Assembly: GCA_003152795.1 (NCBI GenBank)
Contig: PMBA01000258.1
Coordinates: forward strand, 1 to 14,825
DNA from: Acidobacteriaceae bacterium
GTDB taxonomy: Bacteria; Acidobacteriota; Terriglobia; Terriglobales; Acidobacteriaceae
Length of the DNA stretch: 14,825 nucleotides
Direction: 5' to 3'
Part shown: piece by piece, positions 974 through 9,545 of the stretch
Position numbering within the stretch: position 1 is the first letter of the stretch
Layout of the letters: every line of letters starts with the position of its first letter
Made by a program: the position numbers and the translations under genes
The notes under the pieces: generated by a model
What the model was told of the DNA's origin: nothing
Databases searched by the model: none
What the model saw: only the letters and a program-made list of their open reading frames with translations

Positions 974-2101
974 TCACTTGCGGCCGCCCGCTGTTGCCGC
1001 GCGCGCAGCGCCTTGGGGTGGCAGACCCCGGTGGTAGATCAGTTCGGTGAGCGACGGAATGTTGGCATACGGGCTGTCAATCGCGTCGATCATGATGGGC
1101 TGATCTTTGGGCACGGGTTTCAGGATGACTTCGCCCCGCATCAGTTCGCGGCAGGAGATTTGTCCCTGCTGCAGAGGAATCGCCAGATAGACGTCGGCAT
1201 CCTGAAGAACGTGGCCAACTGGAAGATCGTGCTTTGCGTAAACCCCGCGAACGAGCGAGTCCAGATAGGCAACTTCCTTTTGCGGAGGCAGACGCTTCTG
1301 TGTTCCCGGAGCGCCGCACATTCTCTTGGCGCGTTGAAAAGCCTTGAACCAGGTGTCGACCTGCTCCGGCACCGAGCAGTAGGGAGAAACAGTCATGCCC
1401 TCGGTTTGAATGTCGACATGGCGCTCGAAAGTCCGCGCGCCTTTCGCATAGGCCATCAGCATCGACGAAGTCCAGTCACGGTACTCGTGCGTGGAAAAGC
1501 CGATGGTGTGATTGGGATAGCGGCTGCGGAGATAGTCGATCTGGTTGAGTTCGATGTCGCAATCTTCAGAAGGATACAGCGAGACGCAGTGGTTAATGGC
1601 CAGCGGGATATGACGATTGTCGAAGAACGTGACCAGGTCGTCGATGTCCTTCAGAGAAGAGCCGCCAGTGGAGACAATGACCGGCTTCTTCGTCTTTGCT
1701 ATCCTTTCAATCAATATCCAATCGTTGCAGTCCGAGCTCGCGATTTTGAGAATGGAAATGCCAAGCTCGCAGCAGAAGTCGACGGAACTCTCGTCGAAGG
1801 GAGTTGCCATCGGGATGCAGCTGGCGGCGCGGACGGCTTGCACCAGGGTGGCGAAATCCTCTGGTTGCAGGCGCGTGTCGAGCGTTTTCTTGATGTAGCG
1901 GATGTCGTCGCGCTGGCGAAAATCCCGATGAATGAAGCTGTCGACATCGCGTAATTGCAGCTTGATCGCAGCCCGTACGTTGTTGAAGCGCACCACCTGC
2001 GCATAGTTACTGATGATCTTCAGGCCTCGCTGCACGTCGCCCAGGTGGTTATTGGCCACTTCGAGCACGAATAACTCGTCGAATATATCATTGCCAGTCA
2101 T
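974..2101 (-). CDS. NeuB/SpsE-family PEP-dependent sugar acid synthase (sialic acid synthase-like)
   Basis: This 375-residue protein has the two-domain layout of NeuB: a TIM barrel (about 1-275) and a C-terminal SAF/antifreeze-like domain (about 285-345). Family enzymes condense phosphoenolpyruvate with an aldose to make a nonulosonic-type acid. Visible matches are LEVANNHLG (E14), AIKLQ (K47), ILKIASSD, a NHCVSLYPS segment in the PEP-binding region, the two expected metal-ligand histidines in GFSTHE and FERHVD, and the SAF arginine in LVRGVYA (R285). The loop after FERHVD lacks the GPDH-type motif of true sialic acid synthases, and the usual glutamate of the KIxSGE motif is Asp, so the substrate probably differs. 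The ATG at 2101 gives a normal family N-terminus; a GTG at 2149 would add 16 residues and has no better ribosome site. No NeuC or CMP-transferase (NeuA) gene is in view. Sampled stretches near 50% GC are lower than in its neighbours. Confidence 0.87.
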   Translation of the reverse strand: MTGNDIFDELFVLEVANNHLGDVQRGLKIISNYAQVVRFNNVRAAIKLQLRDVDSFIHRDFRQRDDIRYIKKTLDTRLQPEDFATLVQAVRAASCIPMATPFDESSVDFCCELGISILKIASSDCNDWILIERIAKTKKPVIVSTGGSSLKDIDDLVTFFDNRHIPLAINHCVSLYPSEDCDIELNQIDYLRSRYPNHTIGFSTHEYRDWTSSMLMAYAKGARTFERHVDIQTEGMTVSPYCSVPEQVDTWFKAFQRAKRMCGAPGTQKRLPPQKEVAYLDSLVRGVYAKHDLPVGHVLQDADVYLAIPLQQGQISCRELMRGEVILKPVPKDQPIMIDAIDSPYANIPSLTELIYHRGLPPQGAARAATAGGRK

Positions 2102-2172
2102 GATGTTACTTGCACGCCCCGTTCGTCGCGCCCTCGCGTTCCAGGGCACGGCCTATTTGTATGGTAATGTCC

Positions 2173-7761: not shown

Positions 7762-8766
7762 TTATCCCTTGCCTGCGTGGGCCATCGCGGCGGGCGCGCC
7801 CAGGAACTCGCGATACCAGGCGAGGGTGCGATCCAGGCCGGATTCGAGAGTGAACTGTGGCCGCCAGTTAAGCTGGGTGCGGGCGCGCTCGGCGCTCAGG
7901 AACTGATGGCGAATTTCGTTGCTCGCCTGGTTGAGCACTTCAGGGCGCAAAGGCGACTTCATCTTCCGCAGGATCAGTTCCACCATTTCCAGCACGCTGA
8001 CTTGGCTTTCATTGGAAAAATTAAAAGCCTGGCCGCGGAGCCCGGCATCGCAGGCGAGGCGCTCGGCCAGCAGCATGTAGGCGGCTGCGCCATCTTCGAT
8101 GTAGAAATAGTCGCGGACAAAATTGCCATCGGACCGCACCACCGGCCGTTCGCCGCGAATCACGGAACGAATCGTGCCCGGGACCACGCGATTCCAGTTC
8201 AAATCGCCGCCACCATAGAAATTCCCGCAACGTGTGATCGCAACCGGCAGGTTATAGCTGGCGGCGTAGGTCTGCGCGATCAGATCGGCGCAGGACTTGC
8301 TGACATCGTAGGGATGACGGCCTTGCAAAGGCATCGTCTCGTTGTATGGCAGGTGCTCCTGATCGCCGTATGCCTTATCCGAGGACGCCACGATAATCGA
8401 CGAGACTCTTGGCGAGCGCCGGCAAGCCTCGAGCAGATTCCAGGTGCCCTCGATGTTCGTCGAGAAGGTCGAGACCGGGTTGCGATTGGCGATGCCAACG
8501 ATGGTTTGCGCCGCCAGGTGAAACACGACCTCAACTTCGTACTCGCCGAGGGTGCGCTCCAGCAGATCGCGGTCGACGATATCTCCGCGCACCGTGTTGA
8601 CTTGCTCAATCCGGCGGCTGCGAACGACTTCGCTTTGTGGAACCCAGTCGCGCACCAGGCACACAACATTCGACCCGGCGTCAATCAGTTGCCCGACCAG
8701 CCACGACCCAAGCAGCCCCGTGCCGCCGGTGACCATGACCGGGCGATCTCGCCAAAATGAATTCAT
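7762..8766 (-). CDS. rfbG: CDP-glucose 4,6-dehydratase
   Basis: This 334-residue extended SDR converts CDP-glucose to CDP-4-keto-6-deoxyglucose (also called DdhB). The start [17 protein letters not shown] is typical of the family. The NAD-binding motif GGTGLLG is at 14-20, the catalytic Ser-Asp-Lys in SSDKAYGD (S129, D130, K131), and the YDVSK tyrosine/lysine pair at Y153/K157. The first glycine motif differs slightly from the GHTGFKG seen in many RfbG proteins. The ATG at 8766 overlaps the rfbF stop as ATGA (8763-8766). A GTG at 8775 would add three codons but lies deeper inside rfbF, so I chose the ATG. The neighbouring rfbF and rfbH confirm the pathway. Confidence 0.95.
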
Positions 8767-9545
8767 TCCGTCCACACTTTCCAGGGGGTCTGCTCGCTCG
8801 CCCAGAGTTCGTTCAGGTACTGGTATTCGCGGTAGGTGTCCATGGCGTAGAAGAAGCCGTCATGGCGATAGGCCATGAGTTGGCCTTCACGCGCCAGTCG
8901 CTCCATGGGTTCACGTTCGAGGACGCATTCCGGGCCGTCGAGGTAGTCGAGCACTCGCCGGTTGAAGACAAAGAAGCCGGCGCTGATCAGGCCGTTTGCC
9001 TTGGGCTTCTCCATGAAGCGCTGGACCCGGCCCTGGGCGTCGGTTTCGAGCACTCCGAAGCGGGAGATGGGCGGCACCGATGTGACCGTTGCCAGGCGGC
9101 CGTGCTGGCGATGAAAGTCCAGCAGGCTGCTGATGTTGACGTCGCTCAGGCCGTCGCCGTAGGTGAGCAGAAACGTGTCGTCGTTACCGAGATAGCGGCC
9201 CACCCGCTGCAGGCGCCCACCCGTCATGGTATCCAACCCGGTATCGGCGAGGGTGACGGCGAAATTCTGTTCCTGATGCGCGCCCATGAATTCAACCTGC
9301 GATTGGCGGCCCAGGCAGATCTTGAAGTCACTGTTCATGGCTTCGTAGTTCAGGAAGTAATCCTTGATCATGTTGCCGCGATATCCAAGACACAGGATGA
9401 ACTCGCGCATCCCGTAGTGGGCGTACATCTTCATGATGTGCCACAGGATGGGACGGCCCCCGATCTCCACCATCGGCTTGGGGCGGAATTCGGTCTCTTC
9501 CCGGAGACGGGTACCTAATCCACCGCACAGAACGACGACCTTCAT
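8763..9545 (-). CDS. rfbF: Glucose-1-phosphate cytidylyltransferase
   Basis: The 260-residue cytoplasmic nucleotidyltransferase makes CDP-glucose from CTP and glucose-1-phosphate, the entry step of CDP-deoxyhexose pathways (also called DdhA). The N-terminus [14 protein letters not shown] carries the pyrophosphorylase loop, followed by [15 protein letters not shown] (K23), the metal-binding aspartate in [10 protein letters not shown] (D131), [12 protein letters not shown], and the late FFYAMDT motif of RfbF. Length matches the usual 257-260. The ATG at 9545 was chosen over an upstream extension to 9590 because it gives the standard N-terminus and has a good AGGAAA site 7 nt away. It is the first gene of the apparent sugar operon and overlaps rfbG by 4 bp. 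Confidence 0.97.

What the first reader, a model, noticed from the sequence alone, without database searches (positions are those of the whole stretch)
974..9545. A CDP-3,6-dideoxyhexose operon carrying three different carbon-carbon bond-forming enzymes
rfbF, rfbG and rfbH are recognisable by motif and would yield CDP-4-keto-3,6-dideoxyglucose. The genes behind them, on the same strand and mostly coupled by overlaps or gaps of at most 13 bp (71 bp before the last), include a C-methyltransferase (one carbon from SAM), a ThDP acetolactate-synthase-like enzyme (two carbons from pyruvate) and a NeuB-family synthase (three carbons from PEP). Known pathways use one of these: YerE in yersiniose, or NeuB in sialic-type acids. 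All three together suggest a branched and/or chain-extended deoxy sugar, perhaps of the caryophyllose/yersiniose kind or a new sugar acid. The product is inference; the gene set is seen directly.
Basis: partly seen in the sequence, partly recalled or inferred. Interest (0 to 1): 0.78.

Follow-up and report, generated by a model that had tools for sequence, protein, structure and literature searches.

The report
Branched-sugar operon with NeuB-fed carboligase
An uncultured bacterium carries a gene set that probably builds an unusual long-branched surface sugar by first making a sugar acid with a sialic-acid-synthase relative and then grafting it, minus carbon dioxide, onto an ordinary deoxy sugar; related sets with interchangeable first steps occur in many bacterial phyla.

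Summary
In detail: rfbF, rfbG, rfbH, an SDR, a TcaB9-like sugar C-methyltransferase, a YerE/JanthE-like ThDP carboligase, a NeuB-family synthase and a GT2 form one tight minus-strand operon in a contig whose nearest relatives are Acidobacteriota. Two of the C-C enzymes probably act in series, not in parallel. Of 80 named loci picked by the ThDP gene, 76 carry exactly one of three 2-keto-acid-forming enzyme types within 5 kb: NeuB (39), HMGL-type (22) or HpcH-type (15). None carries two; three of the other four are cut by contig ends. In unselected genomes, 9 of 9 close NeuB relatives sit beside such a ThDP gene. Of 16 NeuB active-site residues compared, 10 are kept and six, mostly ManNAc contacts, are replaced (roles recalled). 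Best reading: NeuB condenses PEP with an aldehyde; the ThDP enzyme decarboxylates the resulting 3-deoxy-2-keto acid and grafts it onto C-4 of CDP-4-keto-3,6-dideoxyglucose, giving a long-branched sugar of the erwiniose/caryophyllose type, probably C-methylated. The linkage is shown; the chemistry is inferred. New variant of a known kind. The primary ErwE and JanthE papers could not be read, so priority is uncertain.

The parts
8763..9545 (-). rfbF, glucose-1-phosphate cytidylyltransferase (a start at 9590 is also possible)
   Evidence: TIGR02623 339.7 bits, cut-off 300.25; PF00483
7762..8766 (-). rfbG, CDP-glucose 4,6-dehydratase
   Evidence: best NCBIfam TIGR02622 217.2 bits but below its cut-off of 278.45; PF01370/PF16363
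6402..7754 (-). rfbH, CDP-4-keto-6-deoxyglucose 3-dehydrase (E1)
   Evidence: NF011936 731.9 bits, cut-off 423; the sequence shows FYPAHHIT and a C-x-C...C-x-C stretch, which recall links to the His and iron-sulphur cysteines of E1
5269..6390 (-). SDR-family NAD-dependent epimerase/dehydratase/reductase, role unassigned (perhaps reduction of the branch ketone)
   Evidence: PF01370; no NCBIfam equivalog over its cut-off; a relative in 31 of 39 NeuB loci
3978..5276 (-). sugar C-methyltransferase of the TcaB9/KijD1/MtmC kind
   Evidence: PF13489; AlphaFold model pLDDT 89; the best 18 PDB matches are MtmC, KijD1 and TcaB9; C15 C18 C48 C51, H182, E227, H228 invariant in an alignment of 32 sequences
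2173..3981 (-). YerE/JanthE-like ThDP-dependent decarboxylating carboligase
   Evidence: best PDB match JanthE 8rph, 388 bits, then an acetolactate synthase II at 252 bits; HHEQ at residues 46-49 and GDG kept; C-terminal tail shared with JanthE
974..2101 (-). NeuB-family PEP-condensing synthase (NeuB + SAF; alternative GTG start at 2149)
   Evidence: PF03102 129 bits, PF08666 24 bits; 10 of 16 active-site residues kept, six replaced
1..960 (-). GT2 glycosyltransferase, probably a polyprenyl-phosphate sugar transferase (ArnC/GtrB-like), runs off the window
   Evidence: PF00535; best NCBIfam models PgfS and an ArnC-type, both below their cut-offs
9728..10261 (-). GtrA-family membrane protein, probable flippase partner of the GT2
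   Evidence: PF04138; GtrA-like gene in 17 of 80 loci

Best explanation
This is a biosynthetic operon for a long-branched CDP-3,6-dideoxyhexose. (1) RfbF, RfbG and RfbH make CDP-4-keto-3,6-dideoxyglucose (established chemistry of these families). (2) The NeuB-family enzyme condenses PEP with a small aldehyde, not ManNAc, giving a 4-hydroxy-2-oxo (3-deoxy-2-ulosonic) acid (inferred). (3) The YerE/ErwE-like ThDP enzyme decarboxylates that keto acid and adds the acyl group to the C-4 ketone of the CDP-sugar, forming a tertiary alcohol with a hydroxylated side chain two carbons longer than the aldehyde (inferred, by analogy to ErwE). (4) A TcaB9-like methyltransferase adds a C-methyl group next to a ketone (C-3 of the 4-keto sugar or C-2' of the new branch; not resolved), and the SDR probably reduces a ketone (inferred). 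(5) The GT2 and GtrA move the sugar through a polyprenyl-phosphate carrier to a surface glycan (inferred).
For: Partner exclusivity: of 80 ThDP loci, 39 have NeuB, 22 an HMGL-type and 15 an HpcH/HpaI-type enzyme within 5 kb, 0 have two, 4 have none. All three kinds belong to families that form 2-keto-acid C-C bonds; the HMGL partner's nearest solved relatives, after a putative aldolase, are 4-hydroxy-2-oxovalerate aldolases. Partners were swapped on the ThDP tree: at least 7 changes among 76 labelled rows; the starred sisters L064 (NeuB) and L068 (HMGL) are 68% identical. Reciprocal test: NeuB of the window's type (58% or more) lies next to ThDP in 9 of 9 unselected genomes (one of the nine, L098, is the same locus as named L024). 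NeuB site: E25, K53, Q55, K129, S132, S154, Y186, S213, H215, H236 kept in 48 of 48; N74, E134, N184, D247, F288, R314 replaced in the window (residue roles recalled). Three of the eight NeuB relatives without a ThDP gene have a cytidylyltransferase gene nearby (L119, L120, L133; PF02348 confirmed for L119), and an HMGL relative without ThDP sits by a KdsB-like gene (L143, by look); both fit ulosonic-acid products. Published: ErwE does not use pyruvate and prefers 4-hydroxy-2-oxo acids with CDP-4-keto-3,6-dideoxyglucose (PMC12247030). Caryophyllose's branch is 1,3,4,5-tetrahydroxyhexyl (PMC5706390), which is what decarboxylation and reduction of a 3,7-dideoxyheptulosonate would give.
Against: No activity is known for any enzyme of this operon. 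The aldehyde is unknown; the window has neither the HAD nor the dehydroquinate-synthase-like gene seen in many relatives (33 of 80 loci have neither), so a phosphate, if present, is unaccounted for. N184 of NeuB, which I recall as a core or PEP residue, is Ser or Ala throughout the close family. JanthE, the nearest solved relative, accepts pyruvate in vitro. rfbH was not found in 8 of 31 NeuB loci of at least 15 kb, so the acceptor may differ. More distant NeuB relatives lack the ThDP gene in 8 of 29 unselected loci. The one unselected HMGL relative found lacked ThDP in its 12 kb. The HpcH assignment is weak: one Pfam match at 31 bits and no PDB match. No E3-type reductase for RfbH was seen in the window. 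RfbG is below its NCBIfam cut-off. The ThDP loci were chosen by similarity to the window, from a capped list, and are not independent; the Fisher test ignores relatedness.
Confidence: 0.66

Rival explanations
1. Parallel use: the ThDP enzyme adds pyruvate's two carbons to make a yersiniose-like sugar, while NeuB makes a separate sialic-type acid for the same glycan.
For: YerE uses pyruvate in yersiniose (PMC12247030); JanthE accepts pyruvate; the host has five CTP_transf_3 matches on other contigs and, judging by sequence look, a separate PseB/PseC-like set on C289.
Against: Does not explain why NeuB alternates with two kinds of aldolase-family enzyme and never occurs with them within 5 kb, nor the 9 of 9 adjacency. 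A search with two cytidylyltransferase genes found none in any of the 39 NeuB loci of the named set; it found them in L044 and L070, whose partners are HMGL and HpcH. In four distant NeuB loci with ThDP (L124, L125, L126, L132) only the C-terminal part of the query matched, not the cytidylyltransferase domain. Residues recalled as ManNAc contacts are replaced.
Confidence: 0.15
2. Chain extension on the nucleotide sugar: the ThDP enzyme first adds an aldehyde-bearing branch and NeuB then condenses PEP onto that branch, leaving a carboxylated sugar acid.
Against: NeuB is exchanged for aldolase-family enzymes from other families. ErwE takes a ready-made 4-hydroxy-2-oxo acid as donor (PMC12247030). 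A ThDP acyl transfer leaves a ketone, not an aldehyde.
Confidence: 0.08
3. The ThDP enzyme is an ordinary acetolactate synthase and the cluster is a chance mix.
For: The best NCBIfam match is acetolactate synthase large subunit (329 bits), but below its cut-off of 538.35.
Against: Much closer to JanthE than to any acetolactate synthase in the PDB; shares a C-terminal tail with JanthE that the host's own IlvB-like reading frame lacks; the host has that separate IlvB-like gene on C56; linkage recurs in many phyla.
Confidence: 0.02

Closest known systems
Yersiniose pathway (YerE, Yersinia pseudotuberculosis)
   Same: CDP-4-keto-3,6-dideoxyglucose acceptor expected from rfbFGH; ThDP carboligation at C-4 to a tertiary alcohol
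   Different: YerE uses pyruvate or 2-oxobutyrate only (PMC12247030); the word NeuB does not occur in that review's text
Erwiniose pathway (ErwE, Pectobacterium atrosepticum)
   Same: Long hydroxylated 2-oxo-acid donor grafted onto CDP-4-keto-3,6-dideoxyglucose (PMC12247030); a 10-carbon branched product (PMC8657720, passage)
   Different: Donor source not described in the parts I could read; methyltransferase and NeuB here
Caryophyllose of Mycobacterium marinum (MMAR_2332)
   Same: 6-carbon branch whose deoxy pattern matches a decarboxylated 3,7-dideoxy-2-ulosonate (structure from PMC5706390, passage; the match is my inference)
   Different: Its cluster could not be compared here; whether it has a NeuB, HMGL or HpcH partner is not tested
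JanthE (PDB 8rph, Janthinobacterium sp. HH01)
   Same: Closest solved relative of the ThDP enzyme, with the same C-terminal tail
   Different: CDG instead of GDG motif; physiological substrates not identified (PMC12188165, passages)
NeuB/SiaC sialic acid synthase and 3g8r (annotated SpsE-like)
   Same: NeuB+SAF; 10 of 16 compared active-site residues kept; 3g8r is the closest solved relative
   Different: Residues recalled as ManNAc contacts, and N184, replaced; below the NnaB and PseI cut-offs
TcaB9/KijD1/MtmC sugar 3-C-methyltransferases
   Same: Fold match over the whole length (TM about 0.6), catalytic His and Glu-His kept
   Different: 16-20% identity; the Pfam domains recalled for that family did not appear at E 1e-3

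Membership tests
YerE-like ketone-accepting ThDP carboligases | Three ThDP-enzyme domains, catalytic Glu, ThDP-binding GDG/CDG motif | tested here: met
   PF02776, PF00205, PF02775; HHEQ at 46-49; GDG
YerE-like ketone-accepting ThDP carboligases | Closer to a characterised member than to acetolactate synthases | tested here: met
   JanthE 388 bits, next acetolactate synthase II 252 bits; shared C-terminal tail
YerE-like ketone-accepting ThDP carboligases | Gene neighbours that make CDP-4-keto-3,6-dideoxyglucose | tested here: met
   rfbF, rfbG, rfbH in the same operon; rfbG below its cut-off
YerE-like ketone-accepting ThDP carboligases | Couples a 2-oxo acid to a ketone sugar | not testable with these tools
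   needs an enzyme assay
Sialic/pseudaminic acid synthases (NnaB, PseI) | NeuB + SAF architecture with PEP and metal site | tested here: met
   10 residues kept in 48 of 48 close relatives, but N184 replaced (roles recalled)
Sialic/pseudaminic acid synthases (NnaB, PseI) | Scores above the curated equivalog cut-offs | tested here: not met
   NnaB 115.6 against 399.65; PseI 107.2 against 340.25
Sialic/pseudaminic acid synthases (NnaB, PseI) | ManNAc-type acceptor residues (N74, E134, D247, F288, R314; roles recalled) | tested here: not met
   R, D, S, S, I in the window; the listed top residues of the 48 close relatives do not include the reference residue except N74, kept in 4
Sialic/pseudaminic acid synthases (NnaB, PseI) | CMP-sugar synthetase (NeuA-like) in the cluster | tested here: not met
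   not among the nine genes scanned nor on the window's contig; no NeuA-like hit in the 39 NeuB loci of the named set
Erwiniose/caryophyllose-type long-branched sugar pathway | Dedicated source of a hydroxylated 2-oxo acid donor | tested here: inconclusive
   NeuB is the candidate, by linkage and by exchange with aldolase-family enzymes; product not shown
Erwiniose/caryophyllose-type long-branched sugar pathway | Long C-4 branch in the host's glycan | not testable with these tools
   needs glycan analysis of an organism in hand
TcaB9-like sugar C-methyltransferases | N-terminal Zn domain, SAM domain, C-terminal domain in one fold | tested here: met
   Foldseek ranks 1-18, E 7e-21 to 5e-18, then a drop to 2.5e-9; four invariant Cys (zinc role recalled)
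TcaB9-like sugar C-methyltransferases | Active-site residues probed in TcaB9 (Y76, H181, Y222, E224, H225 by PDB titles) | tested here: inconclusive
   H182, E227, H228 invariant and aligned; a Tyr lies in the Y76 segment, register unsure; Y222 is Asn in the window
RfbH (E1 dehydrase) | NF011936 equivalog cut-off | tested here: met
   731.9 against 423
RfbG (CDP-glucose 4,6-dehydratase) | TIGR02622 equivalog cut-off | tested here: not met
   217.2 against 278.45, still its best family; assignment rests on synteny

The most novel reading that the evidence does not exclude
A general, modular way of making long-branched bacterial sugars: one of three C-C enzymes of different families (NeuB with PEP, HMGL-type or HpcH-type aldolase with pyruvate) builds a 3-deoxy-2-ulosonic acid. 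Its phosphate is removed either by a HAD phosphatase or by a dedicated dehydroquinate-synthase paralogue plus an SDR (which would turn the CH2-O-phosphate end into CH3). A YerE-like ThDP enzyme then grafts the decarboxylated chain onto a nucleotide keto-sugar. The window is the NeuB version with an added C-methyl group. This would settle where the caryophyllose- and erwiniose-type branches come from.
Probability: 0.5. Interest if true: 0.8.

Novelty: new variant of a known kind. Interest (0 to 1): 0.66.

Why it matters
Long-branched sugars (erwiniose, caryophyllose and kin) are known chemically, but in the papers I could read the origin of their branch was not traced to genes. The alternation of NeuB, HMGL and HpcH beside one ThDP family, and of HAD and a DHQS paralogue, turns that into direct enzyme tests. 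It also gives the NeuB fold a role in which its sugar-acid product is a donor to be decarboxylated rather than a sugar to be CMP-activated, and it offers biocatalysts for chiral tertiary alcohols with a built-in donor supply.

Tried and rejected
Considered and dropped: C-C enzymes in parallel (does not explain exclusivity); an ordinary acetolactate synthase; an O-methyltransferase (fold match is to 3-C-methyltransferases); a plasmid-borne locus (no plasmid match for ThDP at E 1e-100 or NeuB at E 1e-40). A strict C-terminal regex was too narrow and was replaced, which found the tail in 74 of 80 rows (window plus 79 loci; L048 is cut, five differ in one motif letter) and in 26 of 34 ThDP frames of the later loci. 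The ORF picker lost some genes to opposite-strand ORFs, so counts were redone with tblastn (HAD counted at over 150 bits within 5.5 kb, weaker HAD hits left out). In the ThDP tree L022 was dropped (aligned ThDP under 480 residues) and L002 stands in as IlvB outgroup; JanthE and IlvB are long branches, so their place is unsure, and the tree is the 'quick' kind. HMGL and HpcH were tested reciprocally in one phylum each, with little yield (2 of 249, one of them the chosen centre, and 1 of 247 genomes).

Literature: PMC12247030 was read in parts 1, 2, 4 and 5 of 5 plus passages; PMC12188165, PMC5706390, PMC12395582, PMC12507525, PMC13354803, PMC9912281 and PMC8657720 in passages only. Searches aimed at the NeuB/ThDP combination listed one unopened genome paper on another topic without the word NeuB (PMC4275268), one yeast paper and none. 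The papers on ErwE (Steitz 2022), JanthE (Lanza 2024) and the in-silico survey (Krug 2024) are not held, nor are two papers on M. marinum caryophyllose. They may already name a donor source.

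Full report
WHAT IS THERE. The window is G000:C349:1-14825; its nearest named ThDP relatives are Acidobacteriaceae and Terriglobales MAGs. On the minus strand, eight genes run from rfbF (9545-8763) through rfbG, rfbH, an SDR, a methyltransferase, a ThDP enzyme and a NeuB-family enzyme to a GT2 that runs off the edge. 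Junctions are overlaps of 4-8 bp or gaps of 7, 11 and 13 bp, with 71 bp (or 23 bp with the GTG start) before NeuB. A GtrA gene lies upstream (10261-9728).

IDENTITY OF THE PARTS. rfbF and rfbH pass NCBIfam equivalog cut-offs; rfbG does not (217.2 against 278.45) though it is its best family. The ThDP protein's best solved relative is JanthE (8rph, 388 bits; the next, an acetolactate synthase II, has 252). It shares with JanthE a C-terminal tail with an LED..P motif; by pattern the tail is in 74 of 80 rows of the named set and the window, in 26 of 34 later loci, and not in the host's own IlvB-like frame. The methyltransferase model (pLDDT 89) matches sugar 3-C-methyltransferases in the top 18 Foldseek rows (MtmC, KijD1, TcaB9; E 7e-21 to 5e-18; TM about 0.6; 16-20% identity), followed by a drop to 2.5e-9. 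In an alignment of 32 sequences four Cys, H182, E227 and H228 are invariant. H182, E227 and H228 align with H181, E224 and H225 of TcaB9, and C48/C51 with a Cys pair there (residues named in PDB titles). Y222 of TcaB9 is Asn here. So 'C-methyltransferase' holds, by remote homology.

THE NeuB ENZYME IS NOT A SIALIC ACID SYNTHASE. It scores far below the NnaB and PseI cut-offs. I compared 16 active-site residues of meningococcal NeuB, roles recalled. Ten (E25, K53, Q55, K129, S132, S154, Y186, S213, H215, H236) are kept in 48 of 48 close relatives. Six are replaced: N74 (Arg in 41 of 48, kept in 4), E134 (Asp), N184 (Ser or Ala), D247, F288 and R314. Most of the six I recall as ManNAc contacts; N184 I recall as nearer the PEP side, which counts against a simple reading. 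It still looks like a PEP-condensing enzyme, for another aldehyde. The Arg could bind a phosphate; that is a guess.

LINKAGE, STARTING FROM ThDP. Within 5 kb of ThDP, 39 have NeuB, 22 an HMGL-type enzyme (PF00682), 15 an HpcH/HpaI-type enzyme (PF03328, a weak 31-bit match in the one scanned), none has two and 4 have none (families). Of the four, L036, L040 and L048 are cut by contig ends close to ThDP on at least one side, and L051 has a NeuB 5.8 kb away on the other strand. NeuB genes also lie over 7 kb away in L044 and L070. NeuB is on the ThDP strand in 38 of 39 cases, median distance 688 bp; HMGL 22 of 22; HpcH 15 of 15. The 39 NeuB loci span 10 phyla; 15 of them also carry rfbF, rfbH, the SDR and the methyltransferase, in 7 phyla.

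LINKAGE, STARTING FROM NeuB. In evenly drawn genomes of four phyla (199, 288, 349 and 345 genomes) NeuB relatives at E 1e-60 or better were found in 8, 16, 13 and 5 genomes. Leaving out the window's genome and the three centres chosen because they had the locus, 38 remain. Of 9 with the window's type of NeuB (58% identity or more), 9 have a YerE-like ThDP gene within 3.1 kb; one of them (L098) is the same locus as named L024. Of 29 more distant ones (37-45%), 21 do. In the first phylum the ThDP search was run on the same genomes: 11 of 199 had it at E 1e-130, including all 8 with NeuB. The other three (G095, G097, G109) carry an HpcH-type partner (L099) or a more divergent NeuB (L105, L104) next to ThDP. 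Of the 8 without ThDP, L112 and L127 are short contigs; L119, L120 and L133 have a cytidylyltransferase gene near NeuB (PF02348 confirmed for L119); in L123, L128 and L131 neither was found. In four distant NeuB loci with ThDP (L124, L125, L126, L132) a search with those cytidylyltransferases matched only their C-terminal part (the last hundred or so residues; up to 187 in L132), not the cytidylyltransferase domain.

PARTNER EXCHANGE. On a ThDP tree of 79 loci, the window, JanthE and an IlvB (L022 dropped), the NeuB-linked enzymes fall almost wholly in one starred set (38 of 39 rows, plus one HpcH row). The three partner states need at least 7 changes among 76 labelled rows; each of the three partner labels is clustered beyond all 500 shuffles, which near relatives alone can cause. 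L064 (NeuB) and L068 (HMGL) are starred sisters at 68% identity; L055 (HpcH) and L063 (HMGL), also starred, share 70%. Enzymes of different families that replace each other beside the same ThDP enzyme should do the same job for it. What NeuB and pyruvate aldolases have in common is making a 4-hydroxy-2-oxo acid, the donor class that ErwE prefers (PMC12247030).

A SECOND ALTERNATION (outside the window). Near these ThDP genes 29 of 80 loci have a HAD-family phosphatase, 18 a dehydroquinate-synthase-like gene, none has both and 33 have neither (Fisher p 1.4e-4, not corrected for relatedness). All 18 of the latter also have a short-chain dehydrogenase, and they occur with all three partner kinds: 4 NeuB, 6 HMGL, 8 HpcH. 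In 10 of 10 genomes tested (10 of those 18 loci) there is at least one further DHQS homologue, partial in some. I read both as ways to dispose of a terminal phosphate: hydrolysis, or elimination followed by reduction, the latter giving the terminal methyl seen in caryophyllose's 1,3,4,5-tetrahydroxyhexyl branch (PMC5706390). This is inference. The window itself shows neither gene.

MECHANISM. CDP-glucose goes to CDP-4-keto-3,6-dideoxyglucose (RfbFGH). PEP plus an aldehyde R-CHO goes to R-CHOH-CH2-CO-COOH (NeuB). The ThDP enzyme releases CO2 and adds R-CHOH-CH2-CO- to C-4. The methyltransferase acts next to a ketone, the SDR reduces, and GT2/GtrA export. Carbon count: PEP brings three carbons and one leaves, so the branch is the aldehyde plus two. 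Erwiniose is described as a 10-carbon sugar (PMC8657720), which agrees with six carbons plus four from a C5 keto acid.

LIMITS. The loci were chosen by similarity to the window; relatives are not independent; nothing was assayed. rfbH was not found in 8 of 31 NeuB loci of at least 15 kb, so other acceptors are possible. The own genome has five cytidylyltransferase-family hits on other contigs and, by sequence look, a PseB/PseC-like set on C289, so a sialic-type pathway may exist apart from this operon. The one unselected HMGL relative (L143) had no ThDP in its 12 kb and lies beside a KdsB-like gene by sequence look; the one unselected HpcH relative (L144) lies beside ThDP.

VERDICT. The reading is right in kind and improved in mechanism: a serial NeuB-to-ThDP donor pathway for a long-branched, probably C-methylated sugar. 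The ThDP kind and the sugar kind are known; the NeuB feed and its exchange with two aldolase types I found in no paper that I could read, with the three most relevant primary papers unread.

Noticed in passing
L108:6762-8303, L128:6515-8017, L120:7230-8726: More distant NeuB relatives (about 40% identical) are fused to a C-terminal cupin with weak similarity to D-lyxose isomerase (3 of 3 scanned), which might supply the aldose to NeuB.
   Followed up: partly
18 of 80 named loci, e.g. L016:8843-9916, L035, L063: A dehydroquinate-synthase paralogue plus a short-chain dehydrogenase sits beside the YerE-like ThDP gene and never together with the HAD phosphatase.
   Followed up: partly
L141 (G000:C289:1-4455): The host genome has, at a contig end, genes that look like PseB and PseC plus a reading frame with a cytidylyltransferase match, so a separate pseudaminic-type pathway may exist.
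   Followed up: partly
L143:337-3706: An HMGL relative without a ThDP neighbour lies beside a KdsB-like and a sugar-kinase-like gene (by sequence look), hinting at a CMP-activated ulosonic acid made by an aldolase.
   Followed up: no
L099:4968-5414 and 8245-10074: A short ThDP N-terminal fragment (148 aa) stands about 3 kb before a full ThDP gene, suggesting duplication and decay.
   Followed up: no
window 12721-13902 (-) and 13984-14823 (+): Two divergent, similar-looking beta-lactamase/transpeptidase-fold serine hydrolase genes, near murQ- and murA-like genes (judged from the translations only).
   Followed up: no
L010, L012, L013, L033, L077 and others (23 of 39 NeuB loci): An FkbM-type methyltransferase gene (PF05050) often accompanies the NeuB version; none was seen in the window, while its near relatives L005 and L007 have it.
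   Followed up: no
L124, L125, L126, L132: These loci match only the C-terminal part of the L119/L120 cytidylyltransferases, not their catalytic domain, so that part may be a separate small domain.
   Followed up: partly
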